From: Ectocarpus siliculosus | Taxonomy: Eukaryota > Sar > Phaeophyceae > Ectocarpales > Ectocarpaceae | DNA: 64,000 nucleotides | NCBI GenBank assembly: GCA_000310025.1 | Contig: FN649758.1 | Span: forward strand, 763,716 to 827,715 | Direction of reading: 5' to 3' | Part shown: positions 9,046-60,222 of the stretch, piece after piece | How positions within the stretch are numbered: the stretch's first letter is position 1 | Layout of the letters: each line of letters starts with the position of its first letter | Notes under the pieces: model-generated | Database searches by the model: none | What the model was told of the DNA's origin: nothing | What the model saw: only the letters and a program-made list of their open reading frames with translations | Made by a program: the position numbers and the translations under genes

Positions 9046-9111
9046 ACTTTTTCTCCGCGTGAACCGAGTGGTATCTTACGCCAATCGTTTGTGTTGGTGA
9101 ATTGTCGGACC

Positions 9112-28793: not shown

Positions 28794-30272
28794 AAAGAAG
28801 ATGAATTAATCAAGGGCACGTGGCCAACACCGTTGCAGACACGCATACATACCCAGAAAACAAGAATATGTGGCAAAGATGGTACCACCATTCCCCCAAT
28901 TTACTACAACTGCGGAACCCCAAAAATTCCCCGCCCCATCTTCTAGGAACATTCCTCGGTCGCAATAATCTGTCAATGCTGTGAGTACATCCAACAGCCC
29001 CCCTGCTCGCTGCATTGTCGAGATTATTCCCGAACTGGCTTATGTTATGCATCACACGAAACCCATCCCAAAAACTCCAGAAATCAATGTCATGGTTCAA
29101 CAGTCGTTTCTCCTCCCATTCTCTTTCAACAACCATAAACCATTCAACCAGAGAGACTAGTTCGAACTTCCATTGGTCGAAAACGAACCAGAAACACCTA
29201 CTAACTACCAGAATCTCCATCGGTCTCCATTGTATCCAGAATCTCCAAAGATAAAAACATTCACTAAAAACCATTAAACCAGAAACACTTGACTGGAATT
29301 CCCATCGGTTCCAAACCACTAAACCAGGGACACCACCAACAATTTCCATCGGTCGCTCATGAATTTCAAATTCCCAATATCAAATCATCCAAAACTCAAA
29401 TCGTGGAAACAACTGCAATGGGTTATATCAGGAACAAATGAAAACAAACACAAATGCAAACACATCCAACACCGTCCGGGACAAATCACTTTCCGAGGAT
29501 ACTTCAAATCCACAAGTAGCACAAGAATCATGATTGCACAAAAATGCTCGACTCCACAACACCTCATCCTCATAACAACACGAAGACCATCAATAATGCA
29601 GACAAAAAAACGCTTCCGAGTATTTTCTTAATGCAGACAAAAAAACCCTTCCGAGTATTTTCTATCGGCCAATCTTGAATTCAATGTCCAACAAACACGA
29701 TGAAATTACAAACCAGAATACCTCAGCAACATGGAACAACACCAAACCTGCCTCAGAAACAAAATCTCCTTGAAGCATGTGACATCGCTACGTGCCCTGC
29801 CTGCGTGGTTGACAGCGCGAGGTGCATTGGAGTCATGGAGTGCTACAAAGATAGGCCCCCCTTCCTCTTTCATTATTTTTCCTCAAACACAACCTCCGTT
29901 CAGTTTCCTAAAATACCTTTTTATTTTCTTCCTGCATACCCTACCCATACATTTCTGGCTACGGCCCCCCTTCTCCGAACACCAGACGTGAACGGATCAA
30001 CCATCTACTCGATAAACGCATCTTGTGACATTTGGGTACTGGAAACAACACAAAAATCGCAATCTGCATTGTCAATTCCCGAACTCTGCAAATAGAACAT
30101 CTAAAACAGACGAAACATTCCATTCTCCGAAACATTGTGGCAGTTAATTGTCATGACACACCAATTCCCCCCCCAATGACAATTGACAACAGCATCGAAG
30201 ACATATCATTTTATAGAAATAGAGGGGTTACCCCTGGCCGATGGTACATGGAGAGGCGCGCCAAATACACAT
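28794..30272. other. A/C-rich non-coding stretch outside the large retroelement
   Basis: Strongly A/C-skewed on the plus strand, unlike the surroundings. Diverged tandem units (AACCA..AAACCAG.....TTCCATCGGT) repeat between about 29130 and 29360. A 36-bp unit, AATGCAGACAAAAAAAC..., is duplicated at 29596-29667. An imperfect hairpin, TAATTGTCAT / ATGACAATTGA, lies at 30143-30188. No gene. This may be an older element remnant. Confidence 0.45.
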
Positions 30273-30564
30273 TAAAAGGAGGGGAAGCCGTGGGCGGTAG
30301 CTTGCTCCTAGAGATAGATGAAGGTAGGTTCTGTCGTTGACACGCTTGTCCACGATCACGATGAGATGAGAAAGTTGCTTGTTATTGCTGAGAGACGATC
30401 AGCAAGGGTCTGAGGTGAAGTGGGGATCCAACTTCACCTCAGGGGGTACGCAGACTAGACAAATCCTAAGAGGGTAGGTGTCTGAAGGGTATACCTCCTG
30501 GGACCGACCCACATCCTATCAACAATAAGATGTACCCTATTCAAGCTAGCAGCCACACTCCTTA
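30273..30564 (-). repeat. 3' LTR of the NADAR retroelement
   Basis: A 292-bp sequence nearly identical to 44885-45175. The termini are TAAGGAG...CTCCTTTTA on the element strand, a short inverted repeat and not the usual TG...CA. A weak polypurine stretch (AGGGTGGG, plus-strand 30572-30579) lies just inside. Confidence 0.9.
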
Positions 30565-31896
30565 ACACTAGCCCACCCTGAATATCATATATGCAGATTC
30601 TATACTCAAATCAATGCTCAAATCCTAAAAGCTACAACGAAGATTTGAGCTGACGATTGATGCTCATGAATCGAAGATATGACTCTTCACAAAACATCCA
30701 AAAGGAGGGTGAGTTGTAGAAACATCCCGAATCAACCCCCACACCATCATTGAGACGAAAGATGGATGCGAATGGCCACGAGACAACACATCGACATCTC
30801 AATGACAACGCTCCTACCAATGAAGGGATAAGGCCAAGAAAAAATGTAGTGCTGCACCGCACGCTATCCGCAACAGACGACGGCAAGGGAAATAAAGTCC
30901 AAAATCTAAACGCCACACACCACTCTTTTACGCGCACCCGCGCGTATGACAATGGGAGGAATGAGGGCGACTACCCGAGAGAGTCCCAAAATACGACAAC
31001 AAAACTCAAAACCCAAGCAAATTTCCGAACGAATACGGCCTTTGATACTGGACGCGACGTAAAGGGGAAAATATGAACGCAATCAATCTAGGAAAGCGTC
31101 AAGGAAGGGCAGGAAAAATGAACGACGACAGGCAGACCCACTGACAACAATTTCCAGCGATTCCGAGAACTCAAACCGTATAGAGAGGTGGCCACAGCAA
31201 GACCTAAAGAAAACCAAGAATGCAAAGCATGAATGATGAACGTCTGAGAAGCGATCTGACGAACTTGTCCTGGCTCACTGGCAACGCACAACACAGAAAG
31301 ACTCAAACAACACAGAAAAGTCGCAGAGATACACACAACAACACAACGACTCAAGGGCTCGACGATGAGGAAGGCGTCGTCTGCAGGTAACGATGACGGA
31401 GACGAAGTAGAACGAAGTGTGGATGACGACGAATGTCCACGGGAGAAGACGACGCCACTGGATGGAAGCCCGAAGTAACAGGCCTAGACGACACTTCGGC
31501 GGCACGGTGGAGCTAAAAAAAAATGAGCTGGCAAAAGGCGAACCAAGGGAAACCCGAGAAACTCGGTGTTTGCCTGGTCAGAGGCGAACATACCGACGAA
31601 ACTTGGGGAACTCTTTGTCCAAGTGTTCAGAGGCAAATAACACCGACGAAACTTGGGGAACTCTTTTTCCAAGTGTTCAGAGGCAAACAACACCGACGAA
31701 ACTTGGGGAACTCGTTTTCCAAGTGTTCAGAGGCAAACCACACCGACGAAACTTGGGGAACTCTTTTTCCAAGTGTTCAGAGGCAAACCACACGGAGAAA
31801 ACAAAAACAAAACAAAAAAAAGAACAACAAACAAACAAACAAACAAACAAACAAACAAGGTCCAAGATAGACCAACTCGAACCTCAAACGGCGACG
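30565..31896 (-). other. 3' untranslated region of the NADAR retroelement
   Basis: About 1.3 kb between the pol stop codon and the 3' LTR. It is A-rich on the plus strand with no recognisable gene. It holds a 50-bp minisatellite and a (CAAA)n run (about 31826-31858). Confidence 0.7.
31593..31793. repeat. 50-bp minisatellite, four units
   Basis: CCGACGAAACTTGGGGAACTC begins at 31593, 31643, 31693 and 31743, exactly 50 bp apart, with nearly identical units. It is tandem without spacers, so it is not a CRISPR array. Confidence 0.95.
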
Positions 31897-34800
31897 CTAG
31901 GAAGAGATATTGGGAACAGCCGACGGTAAGGAGTCAGTAATGGGAGGAGTGCGATCCCGGGCGTCGCCCAAAGGGCGCGAGCGATGTTTTTCTAAACACC
32001 ACGATCCACAGACGGCGTCCAAGGCGGTGGAGTAGAGGTGCGCCGGCAGAGGGAGAACGCTGGGGCCCGGGTCATCCAGAAATCGAACGATGTACGAGCC
32101 GTCCTGATGAGCACCAATACGTCCTGTCCACCATAATCCGTCGCGGGCCTTGTACCACAGCCGCGCTCCCACTGGAAGGGGCGAAATGCTGAAGCGACGG
32201 AGCCAAGTCGCGTGAAGCACAAGGTCAGCCCCAGGAGGCAAATAGCGTTCGCCACGATTCCGGGCTAGCTCCCGTTGTGCCGCGCGTGTCCGAGCCACTC
32301 GATACGTGCGGTTACCCTGCTTGCTTTGGCAGACCTCTCGAGACCAGTACAAGAGGATGTGTCGACGGAATTGATCGAGATCGGACTCCCGTTCCCAAGA
32401 AGGAGTAGTCAGGCCTAGCCAATGCGTCTGGTACAGGACGGCGAGAACGCCGCTACGGCCCCGCACCAATTGGTGTCCCGAAATGTAGTCGACCTCGAGG
32501 CGCCCGACAGGCGCCGACACATCATCCGCGGTGACGTGAAACGGTGGACATTTATCGCCGAAAGAGTGCAAGACATAACGCGAAAGCTCCGCGGGTAGAG
32601 ATTGAGGCAGGTCGTCCGTCTCGTATGGGTTGCGACAGGGCTTGCAACGAAGGACAGATACGCGACATCGAGCAGCTGGGCCGGAAAGATCCGAAGGCAG
32701 GTCCAGGTAGAGGAGTTTACGCGCCAACGGGCTTCCATCTGGGGTGGCGTCGGCCGAAGCGCGACCCACCGCAAGAACTTTGTAAGGCCCCGTCCAGGAA
32801 AGCGCGAATTTGGCCTTGAGCACCTGTTGATCCGTGTCCTTCCGCACACCCTGTCGAATTGTAGCAGCCGTGTTGTAGACCCAAGCCCACCCGCCAACAG
32901 TAAATTGCGGGAGCTTGTGGATGGCGTCCAGCAGGGATGAATTACTGCGTTCGACTCGCGAGATCTTCAGGGCGTTGTACTCACGGACCAGGTCGTAGGC
33001 CCGGCGCTGGCGATCGACAGCCAAGTTGCAGTACTCGAGTTGGTCACGGGCTAAGCTTTGATGACCACCGACCGTTGGATGATCGAAGACCGAAAGCGGA
33101 AGCCGCGGAATGCGTCCGATATGGATCTCGTTCGGCGCCAATCCAGTCGACTGGTTCACGGAATTGTTGTAGGCAAATTCAACGTGCGGGAGATGTATGT
33201 CCCAATCGTTTTGCTGGTCGTTGACGACTACCGCAAGCATCTGAGCCATCGTGTGATTGACGCGTTCCGTGCCGCCGTTGGTTTGCGGGTGGTAGGAGCT
33301 GGTGGTGACTTTCTTGATTTTCATCATCTCATAGATCGCCATGGAGAGCTTCGAGCAAAAATGCAGTCCGTTGTCCGACAATAACGTAGTCGGACATCCC
33401 CACTTGGTCATGTACTGGTTGACGAAGATGTGAGCCGTCCCTTTCGCCGTAAATTCCGCCGCTGTAACCGCGAACATGTCGGCTCTCCGGCTGAAACGGT
33501 CTGTGAACAATAAAATGTAGGAGTTGCCCTTGGCAGTCACGGGCAGGGGTCCGAAGAAGTCGACGCCGACGACCGTACCAGGCCCCTGTGGCAATGGCAT
33601 AGCGATGACGGGCCACCGAGCGGTTTGACGCGAAGTCTTGCGAGCTTGACACACCAAACACGCGCGAAGCCACCAGCGTACGGATCGATCCAGACCAATC
33701 CACCAGTAGAAACGCTCAAGCAGACGTTGTGTACGATGAACACCAAGATGGAAGGACGCGGTGGTATGGCAGGCATGAAGGACCCACGGGTGCATCAGCA
33801 TGGGCACGTAGACACGGGGCACACCAGTATCCGGTAGACGAGTGGCCCTGCCGCCAGAGCGCCCGATCGGCGATGGCGCCGGTTTATGTACGAGGAGGGT
33901 GACGTTATCATCGGTCGTGTGCAGCCTGGTTTTCGCCGCCAACGCAAGGACATCGTCTAACCGAGGGGAGCGGAGCGGGGCACTAAGGGTGAGCAAGTCA
34001 GAAGGGGGTGGGGAGGGAGAGCCACGAGACAGAAAACGCATAGCCACCACGCATTCGCTCTCCCGCTGTTGTTCCCTAGCCCAGTCCACAGTGCCGAAGC
34101 TCTGAACGCAAGCTCGCAAATGTGAGGGGTCCAAGTCAGTCGGCTCCAACCCAGAGTCAAGCGATCCCACGGAAGAGGCTGTAGAACGAGGAGCCTCAAC
34201 GACTGGTGAAGTTGCAGACAGCGGTGTCACCCTAGGAGGAGGCATCGGGAGGGGCGAAGTCCCAGGCGAAACCTGGATAGAGGGCAAAACCGAGGATGCA
34301 GCGCGCGCCGATGCCGGCGAAGGCACCTGTGGCGCAGAGGCAGTCGACGAAAACGCCGACGTTGGCGTCGCAGATGACGGCAGGGGACGCGTGCCGGTCT
34401 GGATGGTCTTGTTTGTCGAGCGGGACCTGCTAGGACGACGGGCAGTGGACGATGCCCGAGGGACGATGGTAGCCCGCGGCTGGCGTCCGAAATAGGTGGG
34501 ACCGGTGACGGTGCCTCCAGAAGCAGCGGCGGTCTTGGCCCGAGTTCGTGAAGAAATGAGCGGTCCCCGCTCCGGAAGCGAAGACAGGACGTGCACATAT
34601 CTATTCGCCAAAGACGCGGCCGGAGACATTCCGCGGGACGTAGCCGGAGCCAAACAGGAAACAGGCACCGGAGACGCGGAAACATGTGAGACCACGAAGA
34701 CTCCCGAAGACCTCCGAGAATCTTGATAATCAATCGGTGAGTCCGATCGAACATCCAGCAGGCGCGGGTGATGACGGCGAAAATCCCCAAAATCGGATGG

Positions 34801-37800
34801 CTGTAGCGCTGGGGGTGAAAAGACTCCTGCGGAGCAGGGAGGGCGGAGCCCACCCAAACCGACCTCCGGCGTAGACGACGAGTGATAGTTGAGTCCACAA
34901 GCCCGAATGAGGAAGACACCAGCGTGATCGACACCATCAATGCAATCGGGGCCGGTTGTGTCCGTGTCTTGTGCTGGTAAAGGCAGCCGCGAAAGGAAAT
35001 CCGCGTTGCCGTTTGCCGAACCTTTCCGATATTTCAGGGTGTAGGTGAAGTTGGACAGGAATTCGAGCCATCGTTGTACCCTGGCGTTGTGTTCTCCAAC
35101 CTTGCCAATGCTCTCTAAGGCTTTGTGATCTGAATAGATGATGAACTTGGTTGACCACAAATAGCCCCGAAGACGCTTAATGGCCCAAACAATGCCACCA
35201 GCTTCCAGATCCAGAACAGTCCAGTTCCGCTCCGCCGGAAGAGTAGCGCGGCTGATGTACACAATGGGTCTTACCGAGCCATCGAGTTGTTCTTGTTCCA
35301 GGGAGGCTCCAAATCCGTCAATGCACGCGTCGGAGCACAAACGGAGAGGACGGCTGTTGTCCTCGACCGCAGCCCAATCCGGGAAGACCAAAATCGGGGG
35401 ACGCGCGAGTTCGCTCAACAACGTTTTGACAACCTTGACCATGCCCGGGGTGTACTTGAAGGGGACGCCTTGTTTGAGAAGAGAGTTGAGAGGCCGCACC
35501 TTGGTGGCGAGATTCTGAAGGAATTTCCGGTAGTAGCTGAGGCCACCGAGGAGGCTCCGAAGCTGCTTAACATTCGTCGGCGGCGGCATGTGCGTGAGCG
35601 CCCTAACCTTGACGCCATCAGGGCTAACCCCAGCCGGGGAGATGGTGTGACCGAGGAAATTGGCGTGGGTTGCGCCGACACGAGCCTTTCCTGGAGACAG
35701 CTTGAGGTTGTACTGGCGCAGCCTTTTGAAAAACTCGATCATATTGAGTACGTGTCCCAGAGGTTCCTCATCGAAACAGATAACATCATCCAGATAGGCA
35801 AGCACACGCTCCAGACCGTGCACCACTCTGTTGATGACCTTGACGAACCAAGACGGGCTGGCGTTGGCTCCTTGCGGCATCCGAAGCCATTCGAACAACT
35901 GCGTGGGAGTGCAAAAGGCGGTGAGCGGGACAGTGTCTTCGTCACAAACGATCTGGTGGAAGGCCGAATTGAGATCGAAGATGGAGAACACTTTCCCGGT
36001 GTAGAGAGAATCCAAGATACCGTCCACCCGAGGGAGAGGTTGTCCATCCAAGTCCACCAGGGCGTTGAGTCGTTTGTAGTTGACGGTGATGCGAACCGAT
36101 CCGTCCTTCTTGGGGATGACGACCAGGGGAGAAGCCCAGGGAGAAGTGGAATGCTGAATGAGCCCTGCCGCCAAATACTGATCCAAAACGGCATCCACTT
36201 TCTTCTGCATTAACGGGTTAATACGATACGGGCGCGATGCGACGGGCTTCGTCCCGGCGGGGACAGAAAGAGCGAATGGCATGACGGTGCAAGAACCAAA
36301 ATCGGTTTTCGAAGTAGAGAACACGTCGGAATACTCAACAAGGGCGTCGGCAAAACGATCAATAGCCTCCGGTGTCCATCCCGGGTTGTGAAGATCGAAA
36401 GCGATGTCGTGCATATGTGCGGGCAGCCTAGCCCACAATCGCAGAAAACTGGAGCGCTGGGCCTCGGAGAAGCGGTCAAGCAGTTCTTGTGGAGGCGGCT
36501 TCGGAGGAGGCGGGGCGGAGGCTGGGTCCGGAGAGCGGCGAGTCCCGGACTTGGGGCCAACGGCGTTGACCCGATGCGGTGATGTAGAGGATGGGGGGGC
36601 GGTGGGAGTCGAAGAAGGAGCCGCCTTCAGAGTTTCTACCGGTACTCGTAATAGCGGTGCAGCAGACACGCCAAGAACGTCGCCCGGCTCCAATTCGGCA
36701 CAACCTGCAAGGGGAATACGCTGAAGACCATTGGAAACAAATGCATCGGGGGACGAAAGTGCACCCACTTCAGGTCGGAACGATACGAGATATTCGCCGA
36801 TCAGCGCAGGCATGCCCGAAGAACGGACGAGGTCCTCCTCAACAAGGGCCGGCTCCGGCCCCAAGGAAATGCCCGAGCTCCCTGCATATTCGAGGTGAAA
36901 CGAAGAGGCAGGAGCGTCGTCGTGCGTAGCGTAAACACACGCGCCAGCGGTGAAACGTGGAGAGAGCGTGAGCTCGCCCATAACCCGGCCGTCCGGTCCA
37001 GGGTGGGGGAGGGTGGTGAACACTCGAGAGTTGAACCGCATCCAGCTATCGCGACCCAGAAGCACGGCGTGCCCCATGGCGGCATCTGGAACAACGCAGG
37101 CCCAGACCGCCAACGAAGCGGTAGCTCGAGCTCCATGAAGAAAATTAACGTTGAGACGAACTGACCGAGTGGTCACAAGGGCGGGTCCATCACCAAACCC
37201 ACCCCAACGACGAGAGGGAGAAACACGAACGCTGCCAGCTGTCAAGGCTTCAGCAGCTATCATGGCGGTGACCACGGAGTCGGACACAAAAGACGCAGGA
37301 GATCCAGAGTCCAGCAGCGCCACTCGCGCGAGTTGAGAAGTGGCTGTAGGTCCTCCATGCAGCAGAACCCGGGTGGTGTAAGAGTCCGAGTCCAACAGGA
37401 GCGTGCCGCCGACCAGATCGGGCCCGTGTTCCAGAAGAGGAGGTTGGTCTGCACAAGCGGAGGTCGAGGCCACCAGATGAACACCAGGAGCATGGTCCCC
37501 CGGAGCGTCCAAATGGAGACAGGCTGGGTCTTCACCCCGGTCCTCCCGTGACGACGAACCTGCCGCGGTAGCAACCTCGTGGATGCGTCTACGGCCCTGT
37601 GGAGGAGGCTGCGAAATGGGAGGTGCGGGAGAAGTGGAGGCGGGGAGAGCTTCGCCAGACAGGGGACGATCACGCAAAAGGCGCCGAACTTCCATCAAAG
37701 CTTTTCCCAACAAGTTTTTACCGCTAGACGCCCACTTGGATGAAACGCTAGCCTCCGGAAAGCATGCAGACATGCCGATACCCCAAACGCGATCGAAGGG

Positions 37801-39027
37801 GCTGGCTTCCGCAAGGAGGCGGGTACCCGTCTCCAGTAAATGTTGTTTCATGTCGTGGTTTTGAGCGAATTTGGCATACGACCCCGTAAGCACGATCTCT
37901 TCTCGACGACGCTCCCATTCAGCATAGTCAAAAGGACGTACGTTACGACCCAAGTACTTGTGTGTCTTAGGATCTGGTGCAGCCATGATTTTGTCATACG
38001 ACGTCATATCCCCAAACAACTTCGCTTTTTCAGACATCAGAAATTGCTCACCACATGAATAACGTACCCCCAGTACGTCAAAAGCCGAGGGAGTCTATTG
38101 CGAGAACACAGACGGAGGTTTCCAGAAGAGGAGGACGTCATCCGAAACGTACTCGCATTTGTCATCAAACGGCGGAGCCGGTGCAGGGCGCAGAGGCAAA
38201 GAGCGGGCACCAGGCACGGGCGGGGGTGGGCCAAGCGGACGGGTCCTCATCTCCGACGGGGAGGACCCAGAAAGCGAGGGAGGAGCGGGCGAAGTCGCTC
38301 CGGTCCATGATCCGGAGGGCGGCCTACGGGCGGCGGCTCCGGCGAGGTCAATGTTAGCAGAGGCCATTCGGCTATTAGAGACCTGTTCGTTAGGAGAAGT
38401 CTTTCCTGCGGCAGACGGATATGTGTGAATGGACGCAGGGCGCTCTGGACTACTCCCCCGTGACAAAGGAGCCGAACCTTCCACAGAACGGTGGGCACTA
38501 CCATCCGATCCCGATGGCAGTGGTGCAGTCAGCACGTTGTGGGCAGCAGAGGAAGACGCATTCGTATCAGGTGCTGCCACACGGGGGCAGCGGACGGTCG
38601 AAGACAACGAAAGCTGCGAGAGAGAAGGAGAATCGACGGGGTCCCCGACGAGTGTAGAAGAAGGCTCGTGTGCTATCCGAGAAGAGGCCCGGCTGACAAC
38701 ACCAGGAGAGTCTTGGCGAACAGTAGTAGACGAGGTTCTTGTTCCTTCTGTAACCCGAGACAGCGAGGTGAGCAGGGGTGAACCACTCGACGTCTGACCT
38801 CCCTGTCGCCCACACCACAAAGGTTGTGCCGGAGTGGGGTTGTCATGTCCAATACCAGCAGACGATGAGGTGGGTGACGAGGAGGCGGGCCGAGAAACTA
38901 GATGTGATTTGGGGGCGTGGGGAGTATCCAAAGAAGTAGGCTGTACACGAACATCCTGGGAAACTCCAAAAGGGTGCACGGTGGTTGCTAGTGACGGCAG
39001 TACCGGCTGAACTCCGCCATCGGCATG
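31897..39027 (-). CDS. pol: Pol polyprotein: linker-NADAR-protease-RT-RNase H-integrase-chromodomain-Tudor-like
   Basis: One frame, open from the Gag stop to 31897 except for a TAG at 38095. Residues below are numbered from the Met at 38037. After the NADAR domain, the aspartic protease has LLDSGSPAS (Asp243). RT has NYKRLN, FDLNSAFHQI and the catalytic YLDD (Asp750-751). RNase H has LCSDACIDGFG (Asp903). Integrase has a zinc-binding H..H..CLVC segment (about 1425-1470) and catalytic Asp1493, Asp1555 and Glu1591 at DD35E spacing. GPY/F has WTGPYKVL. A chromodomain-like segment (about 1845-1900) includes YISGHQLVRGR and SWERESDL. A Tudor/SH3-like segment (about 1955-2000) includes LWYKARDGLWWTGRIG. 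The chromodomain and Tudor-like parts would guide integration to modified chromatin. Confidence 0.92.
37669..38154 (-). other. NADAR (YbiA/DUF1768-like) domain within Pol
   Basis: The segment spans the whole NADAR fold. The first strand is VLLFWKPPSVFS. Then come YSCGEQFLMSEKAKLFGD with the conserved Glu, HKYLGRNVRPFDYAEW, IVLTGSYAKFAQN, LLETGTRLLAEASPFDRVWG and the C-terminal GKNLLGKALMEVR. Family members hydrolyse N-glycosidic bonds: YbiA-type proteins act on riboflavin-pathway intermediates, and other NADAR proteins are reported to remove ADP-ribose from guanine. The key residues I can see are kept. A TAG at 38095-38097 replaces the codon where this family usually has Trp (FSxW). The domain lies between the Ser/Pro-rich linker and the protease in the same frame, so it belongs to the element and is not a chance neighbour. 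Confidence 0.88.
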
Positions 39028-39723
39028 TCATTTCTTACCCTTCCAGCCCCTCTTAGCCGAAGTGGAAGCCTCCGATGAGGATTCTGTGTGCGAGGACTGT
39101 TTCATGTCCGATGTGTCAGATGAACGGCGGGCGCGTCCCGAGGAGTGAGCACGGGGTGGGTTGCGTCCTGTAGGTCGTCTATACGAGGTCATGCGCTTTT
39201 TCCACCGACTCCAAAGTGCGGGATCTTTTTCCATGCAGAGCTTGATGTCATTGTTAAGCAGGCCTGTGGCGTTAATGAACCCACGAGTACAGGATTTGAA
39301 GGAGTGGTCTTCCCCTAAGCAGTTGAGGCACTTGCCCTTGTACAGCCGAAGCGCGTTGCGACGGTCTTCAGCCGAGACCAAGGGGGTGGTGAACAATGGC
39401 GGATCATTCTTGGTTAGAGCCATCTCACTAGCGACGTTGTATACCTCTGGAAAGTGTCCTTGCAGCGGCCAGTCGCTGTAGTGCAACAGAAAAGGGTCTC
39501 GATCATCATAAGGTAGAGGGTCAACACTCATCACCGCAGCCGAAGAACCTGGACTCCACGAAGGGGTCACCGACGACCGCAACGCCGAAGAAGCTACAGC
39601 ACGCGAAACAGCAGACGAACTCCGAGCATTCGTGGAAGACACCGAAAAAAAATCGTCACCATGTACCGCCGGCGTGTGCGCGAATGCACGCTTGCCAACA
39701 CATCCCACATATCGTCCAAACAC
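39028..39723 (-). CDS. gag: Gag C-terminal part with zinc knuckle (nucleocapsid)
   Basis: Contains CLNCLGEDHSFKSC (plus-strand about 39293-39345), a Cys-x2-Cys-x4-His-x4-Cys zinc knuckle that binds the element RNA. A basic tail ending KGWKGKK precedes a TGA at 39028-39030. The frame is the same as Pol and is one base off the capsid frame upstream; the two overlap at 39594-39723, where an 8-T run (plus-strand A8 at 39645-39652) lies. Confidence 0.85.
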   Translation of the reverse strand: MFGRYVGCVGKRAFAHTPAVHGDDFFSVSSTNARSSSAVSRAVASSALRSSVTPSWSPGSSAAVMSVDPLPYDDRDPFLLHYSDWPLQGHFPEVYNVASEMALTKNDPPLFTTPLVSAEDRRNALRLYKGKCLNCLGEDHSFKSCTRGFINATGLLNNDIKLCMEKDPALWSRWKKRMTSYRRPTGRNPPRAHSSGRARRSSDTSDMKQSSHTESSSEASTSAKRGWKGKK

Positions 39724-40455
39724 GAAGCATGTCGCCCAAAAGGGGCTTCCATGGAGAGCTGCTCACCCTTGTACACCTGTCCAGACACTACGGGAAACTG
39801 CTTCAACATGGAGTCGCGAACAGCTATCTGCACTTGTGCATCCGAAGGCTTGAACGCGTGATGAGAAACCATGACAGTCATGGCCAGAGCCTTATAGCGA
39901 CGAATATATTCTCCGTACGTCTCGCCGGTGGACACGCCAAAACTACGAAGGCGATCGATCCCCGAGCTCTTGTCTTGAGTGTCCCAGGCGGCCGCCAATT
40001 TCTGGATGAAGAACGCGTACGTCGAGGGCCCGGCCGGTTCCTTGCGCAGATGGTTTTCTACCTGTTGGAAAGTGGCATCAAGAAATTCCAGCGTGGCACG
40101 GTTGGTGGTTTGACCTTCAACGACAGCAGCACGAACACGTTTGCGCAACAACGGAAGCCATCCTGCGACCCAGGTGGAGGAAGCGAAAGTCTGCTTGCGT
40201 TTGACGTCGCTTTTGTTGAGGATCTCGGTGACCACGCCCTTGCAGCTAGACGCGAAACGAGCAAATTCATCAGGATCAGAACCAAGGGGCAAGCGTGTGA
40301 CACTATCAAGTTGTTCCGGCTTCAGCTTGTCCATCTTGTCTTGAATGCGGATGGTGTCGGCCTCCGCTGCAGCGGCGTCCGCAGCGTCCAAAGCCTCCTG
40401 CCTCGTCCTCGCCCCCGTGGAAGACAAAGGCAAGCTAGCATCATCCTGAGGCAAC
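39594..40455 (-). CDS. gag: Gag capsid region
   Basis: Helical region with capsid-like features: FLDATFQQVENHLRKE, then STYAFFIQKLAAAW, TGETYGEYIRRYKALAM and VQIAVRDSMLKQFP. These resemble the retrotransposon Gag pattern (ETYGEY.RRY.AL). It would form the particle shell. Its frame matches the upstream Gag segment (41166-43507) exactly once the 620-bp R600-plus-duplication unit is discounted, so both were one gene before that insertion. Confidence 0.82.
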
Positions 40456-40544
40456 GGCGATGTCGCGTTGGCCGGTGACGCCATGACGTGGCCAGTCGCC
40501 GGGCGAGGATCGATCAGGATAGACGTACGCGGGAGGGGGGGGGG
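40456..40544. repeat. Left copy of the 89-bp target duplication
   Basis: Identical to 41076-41164 apart from the length of the terminal G run (12 against 10 G). It ends GTACGCGGGAGGGGG, where the R600 insertion begins. Confidence 0.92.
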
Positions 40545-40546
40545 GG

Positions 40547-41069
40547 TGTACTCATAGTCGTGCATGCCGTAGTCGTTTGACCATTGACCTCGCATCCCTA
40601 CAAAGCCGGGACGGAGCACGCCGGGTTCTCACCGGACCAGGCTCTCACATCACCAAGCGCGAAGCGCCGTGAGGTATTTGGCGAGTCGCATGAAGGGTGA
40701 GCTGCATCCTGCAAAGGGTGTTCGGCATCTTGTGCTTACTTCCTTGCGTACGGATGACAGCTACGTATGACTTAATTTATTTTCTGGTGCTTTCACTTCC
40801 AGAGACAGTTGTAAGCACTGTGTAACTGCCTCGAGGAAGCTTGACCATTTTAACACAACGTGGTGCGATCATCCCCCGTTGCGCGGAGTGAGGTTTCTCG
40901 ACCCCGCACAACATGATCTAGTCGACCACCATTATGGTTACCGCCAAAAAAAAACAGAGGTAAAAAAAAAAGACGGTAACCTGGTTGCCGAGTTCACGAA
41001 GTGAATTGGCTTGTTTTACAACGTCGTTGCCAATCGACGAAAACCCAATCCCGATGGCAAACACCGAGT
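40547..41069 (-). mobile_element. R600 retroposon inserted in gag
   Basis: About 523 bp matching R600 at 50347-50933 in the opposite orientation. The minus-strand sense reads GGTGTTTGCCATCGGGATTG ... GACTATGAGTAC. It has one copy of the 5' unit, where the other full copies have two. G runs lie at both junctions. A long direct repeat flanks it (40456-40544 and 41076-41164). Its insertion cuts Gag into two ORFs. Confidence 0.9.
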
Positions 41070-41075
41070 GGGGGG

Positions 41076-41164
41076 GGCGATGTCGCGTTGGCCGGTGACG
41101 CCATGACGTGGCCAGTCGCCGGGCGAGGATCGATCAGGATAGACGTACGCGGGAGGGGGGGGGG
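41076..41164. repeat. Right copy of the 89-bp target duplication
   Basis: Matches 40456-40544 at an offset of 620 bp. Both copies encode the same Gag peptide, PRTSILIDPRPATGHVMAS. Confidence 0.92.
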
Positions 41165-41307
41165 CACCACCAAAGGCTGTTGTAGCAGAGCTGGGGCGGT
41201 CGACGCTGATGGCACCACCAAAGTCTGTTGCGGCAAAGCTGGGACGGTCGACGCTGATGACACCACCAAAGGCTGTTGCGGCAGAGCTGGGGCGGCCGGC
41301 GCTGATG
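41164..41307 (-). repeat. 48-bp coding tandem repeat in Gag, three units
   Basis: Three 48-bp units encode a 16-residue repeat of the form APALPQQPLVVPSAST. It lies in the Pro/Ser-rich linker just before the R600 insertion site. Confidence 0.88.
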
Positions 41308-43507
41308 ACGATGACACTGCCATGGCCCTGGCAGCCGCCTCATCGTGAACCTCGTACCCTGAACGAACTCCCGAGGAACTCGAAGCATGGTCTTGCAGTG
41401 GTGCCAAATGCGCCCGCGACGAAAAGGGTGGGGCAGAAGGTGGCATGCTAGGGGCGTTCGAGGGCACAGAAGGTGGTACATTCGAGTCGGCAGCAGCATC
41501 CACAACTTGGCCAGGCGTTTGCGCGCGCAGGAGAGTGAGCACTTGTTCCAACAGCATTTCAGTACGGGAAGCCGAAGTTGAGGCGTGTGATGCAGCATTG
41601 CGTGGTGAACCAACCCGTTCGTCCAAAAGCAAGGAAGATGTGGGCTGATCTACCACGGTGCGTGTAGGGGCATGGCTTTTAACCGCGGCGGAATGTTCAC
41701 GAAGTTGCATGTTGGCAAGTTTGAACGCCAAAGTAGACACGGGCGGCGGTCCTACATCAGCGGGGGGAAGCAAAACCGGTGGCGAAGAACAGAGTGAACC
41801 ATCTTCTGAGGCAGTCTTACGTTCCCCCAACAGCCCAGAACTACGAAAATCACACCGATCATACTGCACTTGCCTGCGACCCCGACCTGACTTCCGTCGC
41901 CCTTTGCCCCCTCGACCGCTGTCCGAGCTGGTCGCCCTGCTGTTGCCCCCGCTCCTCGTCGGACTCCGGCTGCGGCTACGCCTACGCGAAGGCGTGTTGC
42001 TCCCGCGGCGGTCGCTGCTCCGGCTGCAACCACGCCGAGACGAAGGTGCGTGACGTGGCTGGCGGTCGGTGCTCCGGCTCCGGCTCCGGCTCTCGCGGTG
42101 TCGACGCTTGGACGAAGATTCCGCGTACCCCCGCCCGCCATCTTCAACACCCGGCCCTCGCGAAGTGCGCTCGGCCGTCCCGCTCTTGGCCGTGGGGGCT
42201 TGATCACCCCAACGGCTCCTCCGGCTGGTGGAGGCAGGAGCCGCCGACAGACTGTAGTCCTTGGTCCCTCCGGAACCATACGCACGGCTTGCAGAATCCT
42301 GCTGTGGGAGCTGCAGATCATGCTGAAAATCTTCGTTGGTTGCAGTACGAGCTAGCGGCAACCGAATTCCCCCATTGTGCACCACCACCGCGGTTCCCTG
42401 GGGACCCTCGGTGAAGGAAGCCCTACGGAGAGCAGACACTAACCGAAACACACTCTGTCGTAAGGACGGTTCAAGCTGGTCGAGGAACGGACTCGATACA
42501 AGATGTGCAAAACCAAGGTCTGTATAAGAGTCAGGACAGCGGTCACGCACAATTTGTTGGAGGCCAGCAAAAAGGGCACTAGTTCGGTCAGCATCATGGA
42601 AGGTGATCACATCTGTGGGCGTGGAAAGGGGGCGGGACAGGAACGCTGTGTCTTCTGCGTGAAACCTGTACTCCTCGGCTTCGTCGTCCGACGCGCCATC
42701 GGCATCCCCGGCCGGCCCACCCAGCGTCACAGAAACCTGGGGAGCAGCAGCCACTTCCGGAGCCGCCTGGGGCGTGGGAGGGGGCACGACACGACGATGG
42801 GCGGGTCGCGAAAGCAAAGTTGAAGCTTGCGGCCGGTGCCCGAGGTCCTCCAGCCGTGATCGGAGCGCCCCCTGCTTCGCCCTAGCAGCCCGGACATACT
42901 CCTCGCGCGCCGCTAGTTCCGCTTTCTTCTGTGCAGCAGCCCGAGCAGCCTCACGCTCCTCCTCCTGCTTCCTCGCAGCCTCCGCCAGAGCAGCCTGACG
43001 CTCCTCCTCCTGCCTCCTCGCAGCTTCCGCCAGAGCAGCCTGACGCTCCTCCTCCTGCTTCCTCGCATCATCCGCCAGAGCAGCCTCACGCTCTTCCAGC
43101 AGCTTCCGCTCTTCCGCCGCCGCTACCTCGCTAGCCAGACCGCGGTGCCACATCTCGGTCAATTCTTGAAAGGCGGCGAACTCATCTTGCGACAAGTGCA
43201 TCACCATGTCTTCCTGCGGGAGCGAGAAAGGGCGAGCGCAAATGGGGGAACCAGGAGACAAACGAGCTGCCCTGACCACGTCGCGCAGGGAGATCCGTCC
43301 AGCGGTGTACGCCTGTTCCAGGTCCGCCGGATCCGCCGTGGCGATGTTGTACCTCAGGTCATCAGCTGTGGACGCGCCTGGAGTGGACTCGCTCTCGTCG
43401 CCCATCCCGGCCCCTGCAATCAGCTCCACGGTGGACGGCTCGCCCTCGGCCTCGTAATCGAGGATTTCCTCATTGCCGTCCATCCTTTCCACATGGCCGC
43501 TGGACAT
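41166..43507 (-). CDS. gag: Gag N-terminal region with coiled coil and Arg/Ser-rich segment
   Basis: The frame is open from far upstream (44083). I place the start at the ATG at 43505-43507, because the sequence after it (SSGHVERMDGNEEILDYEAE) is acidic and protein-like whereas upstream is leader. A charged coiled coil of repeated QEEERQAALAEAA units lies at about 42930-43110. A folded-looking segment follows (about 42400-42700), then an Arg/Ser-rich block (about 41890-42060) resembling SR-type RNA-binding regions, then Pro/Ser linkers. The gene continued into the capsid region before R600 split it. It is long for a Ty3/Gypsy Gag. Confidence 0.75.
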
Positions 43508-44568
43508 GGTGTTTTCTTTTTTCAAAAAGACAGGGCCAGAGGAGGGGCAGCTACTATCGATTTTTACAAGTGCAGAACGGCCAGCAACAGCAGATGTGTC
43601 TCCCCCAACCACTGTTGCGACAGTAGAACCGATTGCAGCGGAAACAGTAAAACGGGGCGTAATCGCGGTAGAAGCAAGCCGAGGTCCATGCGAAAAACGG
43701 AGATACCCACAGGATAGCATACGCCCGGTGATAAAAGCTTGATGTACACGAGGTTGAAGCGGATCCAACCAAGCAGAAAAGGCGTCCAAAATCACACCAT
43801 GCCACGCATACACAGCAGTGGAAGCTAGCACAAAAGGACCGGTATTAAATGGAGACACGAGATTGTCCGACCAAAACACACGCAGAGCAGCACGGCGTTC
43901 CTCCGCAACGGGTGCCGAAGTGCGAGCAAAGACCGCTGTGGGTTTGCGCTGTTGAAAGGTTTCCAATTCGAATGCCTTGAGGGTGAATGATGCTCCAAAA
44001 AAAATTCCATGTGATTGCGAAAAATGGAGGGAAGGCTGGTGGGGCGGCTGACACCCAATTTGTGTGCACACAATGCTCTCCACGTCGAAACAAGCGGAGT
44101 CAAATCGGAGAGCACCACAGGGAAATCCGCGGACATCGGCCGGTACGCCGGCATGAATGCAGTGGAAGTGGTAGCGGACGCGGGAAGCATGCTATCGTCT
44201 CGAGTCCCGCTACACAAAGACAGCAACTCCGGTTGCTTCATGCAAAGCGTGTCCGCCACCGAAATAACTTCATGGACCGCCGATGCAGACAAAATAGCTT
44301 GGGAGGGGCGGCGAGCGTAGGAAAAATCACCTACAACATCGCGATGACCGCCGAGACGCGTATCCTTCGCAAGGTCCCAGTCCCTCGGGCGCTTAGCGAA
44401 AGCATCGCAAGCCAGCATCCTCTACAAGAGAAGAAGCAGAGAAGGCTAAGTCTAGAATCTCGTGGGTGGTGAGACCAAATAACAAACAACCCCGTGATTA
44501 TGAAGAAAGCGTGACAACAACACACAGCAGTGTGGAGGCCGCGTCCAGCACCCGCTTACCGTGTAATG

Positions 44569-44880: not shown

Positions 44881-44884
44881 AGTT

Positions 44885-45175
44885 TAAAGGAGGGGAAGCC
44901 GTGGGCGGTAGCTTGCTCCTAGAGATAGATGAAGGTAGGTTCTGTCGTTGACACGCTTGTCCACGATCACGATGAGATGAGAAAGTTGCTTGTTATTGCT
45001 GAGAGACGATCAGCACGGGTCTGAGGTGAAGTGGGGATCCAACTTCACCTCAGGGGGTACGCAGACTAGACAAATCCTAAGAGGGTAGGTGTCTGAAGGG
45101 TATACCTCCTGGGACCGACCCACATCCTATCAACAATAAGATGTACCCTATTCAAGCTAGCAGCCACACTCCTTA
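44885..45175 (-). repeat. 5' LTR of the NADAR retroelement
   Basis: A 291-bp sequence matching 30273-30564 with about one substitution (GCAC/GCAA near 45015) and one A indel at the inner edge. It would carry the element promoter, but no TATA box is obvious. Confidence 0.9.
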
Positions 45176-45179
45176 ACAT

Positions 45180-48900: not shown

Positions 48901-51900
48901 AGCGTTGCACGGTTTCACCAGCAAGCGTCTAGAGGCCTGGGCACGACGGCTGGGAACCATTGGTACCCTCACAGTCTCCGCCGGAACCCCCCTGATGGGG
49001 GACGCTTACAGACAAGGATTTTTTTTCGCAACGTCCCACAAAGAACATGTACTGCTGTAGCATGTCGTTTCCGATGTAGATCAGTTGGTTGGTGGGGTTC
49101 ATTTTATTTTCGACCGCACCCACACAAAGAACGAACATAGGTAGCGCCGTTTCCCTCGTGTGAGAACAGCCGACGCGATGGGTGTCCCCTCGGCCTTCCC
49201 CATTGTTGGTACTTCGTATATATGCTAGCGACCCTCGCCCCCTTCCCCTCGTCGGCAACCTAGAGTTCCGGGTGTTGGTAGCCACGATCCGGCATTGGGG
49301 GGGCACCGTAGATGTGTCTTGTTGGTCGTGACGAAAAGAAGCAAGATTAGACGGGTCTCGCTCCCGTCAGTTTTCAGAGAACAACTATTAATAGGCTGAT
49401 TCCGTCTTGTTCGCTTTTTCTACTATGAGGCCAACCTCCCACGGCGTGTCTCTGCCGTCGCCCCTTGCACCTACCAACCTGCCTCATGCCACCGTGTGCA
49501 ACGTCCCTTGTAGCCACCTGTTCATGCCACGATGCCGCTTGCACCGACCTACCTGCCTCATGCACCTGTCCAACCGAACCAGGCACGTGGAGGACTACAT
49601 TGCGGCGCTCGACTACGTCCGCGGGCCAAGTCTGGCCGACGTGATCGACAGCTCGCGCGTGGCCTTGTGGGGCACCTCCTTCGCTGGGGGTCACGTGTTG
49701 AACGTTGCTGCGGCTGATGACGTCCCTAGCCGCGTGGGAGACATCCGAGCGATCATCTCGCAGGTAGGTGATTTCGAGAAGGGCAGGGGGTGATTCAGCG
49801 CTGATTGGGCCTGGGGTTGGAAGACCGGGGCGAGTGATTGGCTCGCCGGTGGGGGGGGGGGGATGCTCCGTGTGGTAACGTAGCGCGCATATCTGTGCTT
49901 TCTCGTGTGACTACCGATGTCGGACTGAGATGCCTGGTCATCGTGTGGCTAGTGGGAACACGCCACTGTCTCAATCTTCAAACGTTTTCCTCCTCTGTGG
50001 ATGATTGACTAATGGCGCCGCATCGCGCGGTGCCTGTCGCACGTTTTTGTTGGCGGTGCATTGGTACGCGATGCTGCCATGGTAGAGATGGGTCACTAAC
50101 TAGTCTATCCCTTTTCTTCCCTGGCGCGGCACAAAGAGGTGACTGCAACGTGATAATAGTACTGTGTCCTGTGCAACCTTCCTCCTGCATGATCCCGGCT
50201 AATGAGTCGGACATGTGCACCGGAACGCGTGCGGACTGGCGCCAGACTTGATGGAGTAAACACACACACACACACCACACACTTTTTCTGTCTTTGATCC
50301 GAAGGATAGTTTAGCCTCCCCCATGCTGCCCCCTCCCCCCCCCCCCGGTGTTTGCCATCGGGGTTGGGTTTTCGTCGCTTGGCAACGACGTTGTAAAACA
50401 AGCCCCCCACTCGGTGTTCGCCATCGGGATTGGGTTTTCGTCGCTTGGCAACGACGTTGTAAAACAAGCCAATTCACTTCGTGAACTCGGCAACCAGGTT
50501 ACCGTTTTTTTTCTTTTACCTCGGTTTTTTTTTTGGCGGTAACCATAATGGTGGTCGACTAGATCATGTTGTGCGGGGTCGAGAAACCTCACTCCGCGCA
50601 ACGGGGGATGATCGCACCACGTTGTGTTAAAATGGTCAAGCACCCTCGAGGCAGTTACACAGTGCTTACAACTGTCTCTGGAAGTGAAAGCGCCAGAAAA
50701 TAAATTAAGTCATACGTAGCTGTCATCCGTACGCAAGGAAGTAAGCACAAGATGCCGAACACCCTTAGCAGGATGCAGCTCACCCTTCATGCGACTCGCC
50801 AAATACCTCACGGCGCTTCGCGCTTGGTGATGTGAGAGCCTGGTCCGGTGAGAACCCGGCGTGCTCCGTCCCGGCTTTGTAGGGATGCGAGGTCAATGGT
50901 CAAACGACTACGGCATGCACGACTATGAGTACACCCCCCCCCCCCCCCCCATGCTGCCCCCTCACGGGGTCCCAGTTCATGGCAGATAGAAGTGTTTTGT
51001 GTTTTCAACCGCACTAAGACTGACGTATTTTCATTGGTCAGCTGGTAGCGCGGTCGATGCTCATAATAAAAAAAAAACACACACACACACACACAACTCC
51101 TGCGCCCCCCCGCCGGGTAGAACGTTCTTGTAGAGAACGAACTCGCGTTTTTTTAATCCCGGTACTGTACAGTACAAGACTGACGTATTTGCAATGGTCA
51201 GCCGGTTAGCGCGATCGATGCTAACTCGAAAACGCACACGCGCTTAACACGCTCGCGAGCAGCGGTTCGTGGTCTAGCAGCTCGTTGGATGGCACGGTGG
51301 GCTAAGGCCATGCTCCCGTTCTCGCCATGCCGCTGTTAGGTTCCCCACCTAGACGGCCGTGCAGCCAGCAAGAGGAGCTTGAAGATGCGAGGAAAGGCTG
51401 GTGCCTTGAAGATGGCGGCGGCAGCAATCGGTGACATGCTCAGGGGTCTCCTAGGCATGCAGGCGGTGAGCATTCTCCCTTATAGCGGGGGCGAGTTTTG
51501 GACACAGTGTGTATACTCACGAACTAGACCGCGTTCTCCCACACATTTTCTGGAACTAAATCCCGCTGGAAACAAAATCCTCCGCAGAGAGAATCGAACC
51601 CGCAAACGGTCATTTGTGTGTTGTGGCACCAGGTTCATGGCGGGCAGTCTGGTTTAGCTGTGAACATGATTGGAGGGAGGAGGGCTTCACCGTTGCCCGT
51701 TAGGCACGCGTTTTGAGGTCATGGTGTTACTCAAAATAGGTTGGGAGAGGGCGTGCGTGTCGCAACACTCGTGCTGGGTCACGCCGCGCGTGGACCCTAA
51801 CTCCCATGAGGCTCGGCCATTTGCTTGCTGTGGCCATTGTGCTGATACCGCTCTCCTTCCCACCTATTGCTGTCTCGACAGAGGTACGTCGGTCTGGTGA

Positions 51901-59633: not shown

Positions 59634-60222
59634 CTCGGTGTTTGCCATCGGAGTTGGGTTTTCGGCGCGTGGCAACGACGTTGTAAAACAAGCCCCCCCC
59701 TCGGTGTTTGCCATCGGGATTGGATTTTCGTCGCTTGGCAACGACGTTATAAATCAAGCAAATTCACTTCGTGAACTCGGCAACCAGGTTACCGGCTTTT
59801 TTTGTACCTCTCTGCTTTTTTTTTTTGCGTTTACCATATTGGTGGTCGAGTAGATCATGTTGCGCGGGGTCGAGAACCCTCACTCCGCGCAAGGGGGATG
59901 ATCGCACCACGTTGGGTTAAAACGGTCAAGCATCCTCGAGGCAGTTACACAGTGCTTATAACTGTCTCTGGAAGTGAAAGCACCAGAAAATAAATTACGT
60001 CATACGCAGCTGTCGCCGGTACGCAAGGAAGTAAGCGCAAGATGCCAAACACTCATAGCAGGATGCAGCGCACCCTTCAAGCGACTCGCGAAATACCTCA
60101 CGGCGCTTCGCGCTTGGTGATTTGAGAGCCTGGTCCGGTGAGAACCCGGCGCGCTCCGTCCCGGCTTTGTAGGGATGGGAGGTCAATGGTCTAACGACTA
60201 CGGCATGCACGACTATGAGTAC
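59634..60222 (+). mobile_element. R600 retroposon, older full-length copy
   Basis: Matches 50347-50933 over its whole length in the same orientation but with more substitutions (for example TCGGCGCGTGG for TCGTCGCTTGG). It has two 5' units and ends GACTATGAGTAC at 60222 without a C run. Confidence 0.88.

What the first reader, a model, noticed from the sequence alone, without database searches (positions are those of the whole stretch)
37669..38154. NADAR domain built into a Ty3/Gypsy retrotransposon polyprotein
Between the Gag zinc knuckle and the aspartic protease, in the Pol frame, lies a full-length NADAR (YbiA/DUF1768-like) domain with its conserved Glu (CGEQF), LGR, ASPFDRVWG and GKNLLG..LMEVR motifs. 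Retroelement polyproteins normally carry only replication and integration functions here. NADAR enzymes cleave N-glycosidic bonds of ADP-ribose-type substrates. A young element carrying one could reverse host ADP-ribosylation of its nucleic acids or proteins, or use it in replication. The function is inference; the fusion is seen. I do not know whether such elements have been described.
Basis: partly seen in the sequence, partly recalled or inferred. Interest (0 to 1): 0.88.

Follow-up and report, generated by a model that had tools for sequence, protein, structure and literature searches.

The report
NADAR enzyme inside algal jumping gene
A large family of LTR retrotransposons in the brown alga Ectocarpus carries, in its polyprotein, an enzyme domain of the kind that removes ADP-ribose from nucleic acids; the fusion was already published in 2025, but its kinship to the alga's own genes and its likely route of expression are added here.

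Summary
On the minus strand (37672-38127) lies a NADAR domain (PF08719, 8e-41) between a Gag zinc knuckle and protease-RT-RNase H-integrase of a Ty3/Gypsy element with 296-bp LTRs, in Ectocarpus siliculosus. It is no one-off: 150 NADAR places were scored in this genome, and 95 of 109 places of the matching reverse transcriptase have NADAR just upstream. The fusion is already in print for this genus (PMC12477816, Genome Biol 2025). The window's own copy is broken: an in-frame TAG cuts NADAR, and Gag is interrupted.

Added here: (1) eight ADP-ribose-contacting residues of the solved Phytophthora NADAR are kept in 22 of 30 element copies, all eight misses among the weakest hits; (2) the domain is constrained about as strongly as protease and RT; (3) its nearest kin in trees are brown-algal cellular NADAR genes, which favours capture from algal mRNA over direct bacterial transfer; (4) Gag and Pol share one frame across a conserved UGA with a possible stem after it, so NADAR is probably made by stop-codon readthrough and packaged with RT.

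Best reading: a particle-borne de-ADP-ribosylase protecting the element's RNA, cDNA or proteins. Activity, readthrough and packaging are inferred.

The parts
37672..38127 (-). NADAR (YbiA-type) domain, first domain of Pol found by profile; cut by an in-frame TAG at 38095-38097 in this copy
38095..38097 (-). in-frame TAG inside NADAR; 129 of 150 scored NADAR places of the genome have no stop inside
31897..38094 (-). Pol ORF (2065 aa after the TAG): NADAR - PR - RT - RNase H - integrase - chromodomain-like tail
38098..39027 (-). N-terminal part of Pol between the Gag stop and the TAG, same frame
39028..39030 (-). TGA that ends Gag, in frame with Pol; TGA kept at this junction across subfamilies
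38992..39030 (-). TGA, 8-nt spacer, possible 6-bp stem (16-nt loop in this copy): candidate readthrough signal
39289..39330 (-). Gag zinc knuckle CLNCLGEDHSFKSC
39031..44191 (-). Gag region, broken in this copy (frame change, 531-bp repeat inserted)
37279..37317 (-). protease-like motif LLDSGSPASFVSD
35641..36117 (-). reverse transcriptase RVT_1
35047..35361 (-). RNase H
33286..33804 (-). integrase (H2C2 zinc binding; rve core below its cut-off)
32341..32496 (-). chromodomain-like stretch, below the Pfam cut-off (E 0.11)
44883..45178 (-). 5' LTR
30272..30567 (-). 3' LTR

Best explanation
A Ty3/Gypsy lineage of brown algae captured, once or a few times, a spliced mRNA of an algal cellular NADAR gene and keeps it as the first enzyme of Pol. 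Ribosomes make Gag; a small share read through a leaky UGA-C stop and make Gag-NADAR-PR-RT-RH-IN. NADAR is thereby packaged in the particle at the dose of RT. There it hydrolyses N-glycosidic ADP-ribose adducts, most likely on guanine of the element's own RNA or nascent cDNA (or on particle proteins), so that reverse transcription is not blocked. Shown: fusion, copy number, residue conservation, constraint, kinship, the conserved in-frame UGA. Inferred: readthrough, packaging, enzymatic activity, substrate, benefit.
For: Domain match far above cut-off. 150 NADAR places scored of 230 candidates, one of them the cellular gene; 129 without a stop inside; 22 lie in open frames of 2014-2580 aa (my counts, leaving out two odd frames of 10,887 and 6,365 aa). 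92 of 109 RT places have NADAR 0.6-2.6 kb upstream on the same strand, 87 of these at 1.49-1.68 kb; 95 with the extra places. In 28 of 30 loci read, NADAR has a PR match beside it, in 27 of 30 RT as well. Residues E43, K50, R79, W89, R93, E125, D130, W133 of the P. nicotianae NADAR (roles: PMC11543638, passages) are all kept in 22 of 30 element copies read, the window's included. Between subfamilies NADAR is 55-67% identical with third positions near saturation (p3 0.55-0.71) against p2 0.22-0.31; the one computable pair gives dN 0.275, dS 2.87; PR (47-60%) and RT (59-73%) behave alike. NADAR model: mean pLDDT 93.8. Tree of 53 rows: 17 element rows, 10 brown-algal cellular rows and one unnamed row form a clade at 97/88, with 24 other rows (6 named, all bacterial; 18 unnamed) outside; 99/82 for the like clade among 139 rows (bootstrap not settled). 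The cellular gene at L027 has two introns inside the domain, and its joined exons equal a deposited 391-aa protein letter for letter; element domains have none. In 23 of 26 sequences the first stop after the knuckle is a TGA followed by C; a 24th has a TGA at its relative's distance after an earlier stop.
Against: No activity was measured. No DarT or Tpt1/KptA match in the genome, so a nucleic-acid ADP-ribosylating host enzyme is not identified; PARP gave four short matches (E 5e-6 to 4e-4). Of three further contacts named in PMC11543638, K75 is kept in 17 of 18 element rows, Y84 is Phe in 18 of 18, and D86 is kept in 1 of 18. Eight of 30 element copies, all among the ten weakest hits read, have lost contact residues; two of these (L024, L026) keep NADAR's ends in frame while its middle lies in another frame, so the domain may be dispensable in some copies. 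Fourteen of 109 RT places showed no NADAR. Only 10 of 26 sequences run unbroken from the TGA into NADAR. In the Candida element Tca2 a similar UGA plus predicted pseudoknot did not direct readthrough in yeast (PMC2194720, abstract and passages). In two of three trees cellular rows fell between the two element groups or left them unjoined, which would mean two captures or a return to the host.
Confidence: 0.42

Rival explanations
1. The element took NADAR directly from bacteria (the origin suggested in PMC12477816), and the algal cellular genes are a separate acquisition.
For: Single-domain NADARs with bacterial names are 51-58% identical to the element domain, against 53-60% for the five brown-algal cellular ones. 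The published blastp left out Ectocarpus and found nearly only bacteria. The algal gene may itself stem from bacteria (PMC7922944, passages).
Against: With algal cellular genes included, elements and 10 brown-algal rows group apart from 24 other rows at 97/88, with Chrysoparadoxa next; 18 of those 24 are unnamed. P0003 and P0008 also share the stretch FD.TREYVS ahead of the domain.
Confidence: 0.2
2. NADAR works on small molecules (NAD or ADP-ribose derivatives, riboflavin-pathway intermediates) or on protein ADP-ribosylation in the cell, not on the element's nucleic acid.
For: TIGR02464, named for riboflavin intermediates, matches best in NCBIfam. PMC9503650 posits soluble ADP-ribose derivatives for viral NADARs in general and macromolecular adducts made by host enzymes for RNA-virus ones (passages). 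The host has PARP-like matches.
Against: Placement in Gag-Pol, beside PR and RT, points to a particle function (inference).
Confidence: 0.25
3. NADAR is a passive or purely structural/binding segment of Pol.
For: L024 keeps a 2346-aa open frame with the domain's middle out of frame. Two of three further contacts, Y84 and D86, are not kept.
Against: Eight contact residues, the catalytic ones included, kept in subfamilies only 55-67% identical.
Confidence: 0.1
4. Pol, with NADAR, is made not by readthrough but by splicing out the stop, by reinitiation, or from a separate transcript.
For: Gene model P0001 leaves out the stretch that holds the stop; Tca2 precedent against simple readthrough.
Against: TGA kept in 24 of 26 sequences (C next in the 23 whose context was printed), across subfamilies whose Gag pieces are mostly 21-47% identical to the window's; stem pairs 56 of 60 cells against 17-45 for slid partners, two positions with changes on both sides.
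Confidence: 0.3
5. A one-off capture in a single copy.
For: None found.
Against: PMC12477816.
Confidence: 0.01

Closest known systems
NADAR-carrying Gypsy lineage of Ectocarpus (e.g. Gypsy-12_Ec32), PMC12477816, Genome Biol 2025
   Same: Same genus, probably the same reference strain (inferred); [quoted passage not shown] chromodomain reported at the C-terminus, a sub-cut-off chromodomain-like stretch here
   Different: The paper left the origin as possible horizontal transfer, with nearly only bacterial hits; its main text does not hold the words readthrough or stop codon. Its family consensus sequences were not compared, so family identity is not tested
NADAR in ORF1 of Tx1 LINEs of Crassostrea gigas (reported in PMC12477816)
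   Same: Retroelement with a NADAR domain
   Different: Non-LTR element, divergent domain
dUTPase in Gypsy elements of Postia placenta (PMC2864245)
   Same: A captured enzyme of nucleotide metabolism, in PosPlaTy3-3 also at the N-terminus of Pol (passages)
   Different: Different enzyme and chemistry
NADAR of Phytophthora nicotianae (PMC11543638; entry 8bau by recall and by residue numbering)
   Same: YbiA-type, eight contact residues shared; that enzyme hydrolyses ADP-ribosyl-guanine
   Different: Not part of a retroelement polyprotein; Y84 is Phe in the elements
Esi0017_0056 of Ectocarpus (PMC7922944), very likely P0124/L027 (same 391-aa length, genus and domain)
   Same: Same domain, same algal clade in the tree
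   Different: Cellular gene with introns, stress-induced, no retroelement domains; that paper's main text has no 'retro' or 'transpos' word
UGA-separated gag/pol of Tca2 and UAG of MuLV (PMC2194720)
   Same: Gag and Pol in one frame with a stop, an 8-nt spacer (Tca2) and a predicted structure
   Different: Tca2 has the order PRO-IN-RT and its signal failed in yeast; no pseudoknot was shown here

Membership tests
Ty3/Gypsy (Metaviridae) LTR retrotransposon | Pol order PR-RT-RNase H-integrase | tested here: met
   PR by motif only
Ty3/Gypsy (Metaviridae) LTR retrotransposon | flanking LTRs | tested here: met
   296 bp, 99.3%
Ty3/Gypsy (Metaviridae) LTR retrotransposon | short target-site duplication | tested here: inconclusive
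   none seen by eye at the ends printed
Ty3/Gypsy (Metaviridae) LTR retrotransposon | RT clusters with Gypsy RTs in a tree | not tested
   rests on PMC12477816 for the lineage
NADAR superfamily | profile match over the curated cut-off | tested here: met
NADAR superfamily, YbiA subfamily | glutamate at the E125 position (Asp in BC4488 type, His in phage type) | tested here: met
   31 of 31 sequences: 29 element loci, the cellular gene and the window; criterion from PMC11543638
NADAR hydrolase of ADP-ribosyl-guanine | enzyme activity | not testable with these tools
   needs an assay
Gypsy-12_Ec32 lineage of PMC12477816 | sequence identity with its family consensus | not tested
   consensus not held; agrees in architecture, host genus and domain
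stop-codon-readthrough Gag-Pol | Gag and Pol in one frame with a single stop | tested here: met
   10 of 26 sequences unbroken into NADAR; the other 16, the window included, carry further stops or frame changes; TGA in 24 of 26
stop-codon-readthrough Gag-Pol | conserved downstream RNA structure | tested here: inconclusive
   6-bp stem, 56 of 60 cells paired in 10 distinct sequences; the 3' arm was picked for best pairing; not in the minimum-energy fold of every row; no Rfam family over its cut-off
stop-codon-readthrough Gag-Pol | measured readthrough | not testable with these tools
   needs a reporter

The most novel reading that the evidence does not exclude
Brown algae defend against retrotransposons by ADP-ribosylating their nucleic acids, and this lineage answered by stealing the host's own reversing enzyme and packaging it in its particles through a UGA readthrough: an eraser carried by a retroelement.
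Probability: 0.13. Interest if true: 0.88.

Novelty: already known. Interest (0 to 1): 0.45.

Why it matters
The fusion itself is in print, so the discovery claim falls. It still offers an experimentally handy case of ADP-ribose biology meeting retroelements: a conserved enzyme domain, in high copy number, in a model alga, with related cellular genes in the same genome for comparison. If the enzyme acts on the element's RNA or cDNA, nucleic-acid ADP-ribosylation would become a candidate genome defence in a eukaryote.

Tried and rejected
Rejected: one-off capture; chance match. A host writer of the mark was looked for and not found among DarT and Tpt1. A Tudor-like fold after the chromodomain-like stretch was suspected; the model was too poor to use (mean pLDDT 37.7), the sequence search of solved structures gave one irrelevant match at E 0.17, and fold search was off. 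Viral contigs gave two NADAR loci, used only as rows of the tree. 744 of 50,697 phage records match, all under 60% identity: distant kin. Rfam gave only two sub-cut-off matches near the Gag stop. dN/dS between subfamilies is mostly not computable because synonymous sites are saturated.

Rows dropped: the residue table used 18 chosen element rows (12 of 29 element loci, the window, five deposited proteins) and left out L024 and L026; therefore recounts all 30 loci and the window. The 53-row tree leaves out 86 of 111 unlabelled rows, the 8bau row, two viral rows and P0104 of the 139-row tree. The element rows alone as one clade are neither shown nor rejected (p-AU 0.114, 0.089). The stem count leaves out L009, L016 and L025.

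Literature searches for the fusion: NADAR + retrotransposon, NADAR + ADP-ribos (8), NADAR + brown alga (34), YbiA + transposon + Gypsy (35), DUF1768 (70), NADAR domain + reverse transcriptase + polyprotein (71); for readthrough in such elements; for host gene capture in Ectocarpus elements; for dUTPase. Of PMC12477816 I saw passages only, not its supplements.
Full report
What is there. The finding is on the minus strand. A 2065-aa Pol frame (31897-38094) carries NADAR, then RT, RNase H and integrase, with Pfam E-values of 8.1e-41, 1.9e-25, 1.1e-27, 6.2e-13 (H2C2) and 1.3e-6 (rve, below its cut-off). A Gag zinc knuckle is at 39289-39330, upstream, and a protease-like DSG motif at 37279-37317, downstream of NADAR. 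LTRs of 296 bp with two mismatches bound the element at 30272-30567 and 44883-45178. No target-site duplication was obvious there.

This copy is broken. An in-frame TAG at 38095-38097 cuts NADAR. Gag changes frame near 39.6-39.8 kb and holds a 531-bp insert that L014 lacks, a repeat that also occurs at 50403-50935 and 59693-60223 on the other strand. Of 150 scored NADAR places, 129 have no stop inside.

Host. The genome holds 189 Mb in 492 contigs. A NADAR gene on contig C24, its three exons joined by eye at splice-like sites, gives a 391-aa protein that equals P0124, named Ectocarpus siliculosus, over its whole length; the longest contig given for P0124, 3,847,105 bases, is the length of C24. 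It has the length of Esi0017_0056, a 391-aa DUF1768 protein whose gene is induced by abiotic stress (PMC7922944, abstract start and passages).

How common. Of 150 NADAR places scored (230 candidates) I read 30, the 20 best and 10 weakest. In 28 of 30 a PR match lies beside NADAR and in 27 of 30 RT as well; L021 has lost PR and RT, L030 is decayed, and L027 is the cellular gene. A search with the window's RT gave 109 places (108 of 599 candidates scored); 92 have NADAR upstream on the same strand within 6 kb, 87 of them at 1.49-1.68 kb. One search adds C11, C63 and C54, making 95 of 109. Of the 14 left, one lies 1.4 kb from a contig start (C396) and two are pieces of one place (C489); I could not read them.

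Is the domain working? The Mol Cell paper names residues of the P. nicotianae NADAR that contact ADP-ribose (PMC11543638, passages). Eight (E43, K50, R79, W89, R93, E125, D130, W133) are all kept in 22 of 30 element copies: the 20 best loci, L029 and the window. The eight copies that lack some are all among the ten weakest hits; E125 is kept in every one. K75 is kept in 17 of 18 rows, Y84 is Phe in 18 of 18, D86 is kept in 1 of 18. Matching 8bau to that protein is by recall, borne out by its residue numbers with an offset of two. Subfamilies are 55-67% identical in NADAR with third codon positions near saturation, much like PR and RT, while Gag pieces outside the window's own subfamily match at 21-47%. 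I read this as long-term purifying selection. The piece after the TAG folds with confidence (mean pLDDT 93.8, 52 rows). Against: L024 and L026 carry NADARs whose middle lies in another frame.

Origin. Search with an alignment of five element domains and the cellular one gave 7746 proteins, 120 listed; most are unnamed, named ones are bacterial or algal, at like identity. Trees separate them. Among 53 rows, 17 element rows, 10 brown-algal cellular rows and P0069 (unnamed) form one clade at 97/88, Chrysoparadoxa joins next (97/95), and 24 other rows (6 named bacteria, 18 unnamed) lie outside. The elements with P0069 stand together at 84/85 there; in two earlier trees with fewer cellular rows the two element groups were split by cellular rows or left unjoined. 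A single element clade is not rejected (p-AU 0.114). Two cellular genes in this genome are split by introns: L027, and the orthologue of P0008 at C24:2125206-2127066, where separate exons match at 92% and 81%. That P0009-P0012 are cellular is inferred from their length, N-termini and place in the tree. Element domains lack introns. So capture of an algal mRNA is the simplest account; the direction element-to-host is less likely, because the host genes have introns and an extra N-terminal Cys/His stretch, but it is not excluded.

Expression. In the element the Gag ORF ends in TGA and Pol goes on in the same frame. Among 26 sequences with a knuckle match, the first stop is this TGA, followed by C, in 23; L025 has a TGA at its relative's distance after an earlier stop; L009 and L016 differ. 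In 10 of 26 the frame runs unbroken from it into NADAR; the others, the window included, carry further stops or frame changes. Eight bases after TGA a 6-base arm can pair with an arm 16 or 19 bases on. Ten distinct sequences from 23 loci give 56 of 60 pairs, against 17-24 for partners slid by 1-2 and 44-45 for 3 (a codon step); pairs 1 and 3 change on both sides. The partner arm was picked for best pairing, so the count leans towards the stem, and the stem is not part of the minimum-energy fold in every row. UGA-C is a leaky context (recalled). I take readthrough as likely, not shown; Tca2 warns that a similar layout can fail in a reporter.

Mechanism. An enzyme at the front of Pol, if cleaved out by PR, would sit in the particle beside RT. 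Gypsy elements of Postia carry a captured dUTPase, in one family also at the N-terminus of Pol (PMC2864245, passages); NADAR may likewise keep nucleic acid clean, by clearing ADP-ribose from guanine in RNA or cDNA. What would write that mark in Ectocarpus is unknown: no DarT or Tpt1 match, four short PARP matches (these searches read exons one by one and can miss split genes).

Known or new. [quoted passage not shown] The finding is thus already known. The link to cellular algal genes and the conserved in-frame UGA were not in the passages seen, nor in the listings.

Noticed in passing
window 38992-39030 and L001-L029: Conserved in-frame TGA between Gag and Pol with a possible downstream stem, across subfamilies of this Gypsy lineage.
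   Followed up: partly
L027 3115-6601: Three-exon cellular NADAR gene of Ectocarpus (P0124), with an N-terminal Cys/His stretch like that of P0008 and P0010-P0012.
   Followed up: yes
window 40545-41075, 50403-50935, 59693-60223: 531-bp repeat, 92-98% alike, one copy sitting in Gag of this element between 89-bp direct repeats.
   Followed up: partly
window 32116-32166: Tail of Pol after the chromodomain-like stretch looks Tudor-like to the eye (WYKARDGLWWTGRI); model too poor to tell.
   Followed up: partly
L024 4821-5270, L026 4797-5246: NADAR copies whose middle is in another frame while the outer frame stays open.
   Followed up: partly
G000:C3:3913787-3914242 and G000:C489:435177-435536: NADAR hits reported inside open frames of 10,887 and 6,365 aa; may be repeats or withheld bases.
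   Followed up: no
window 8323-9075 (-): ORF that resembles a tyrosine recombinase (by eye).
   Followed up: no
window 31542-31841: 50-bp tandem repeat, about five copies, between the 3' LTR and the end of Pol.
   Followed up: no
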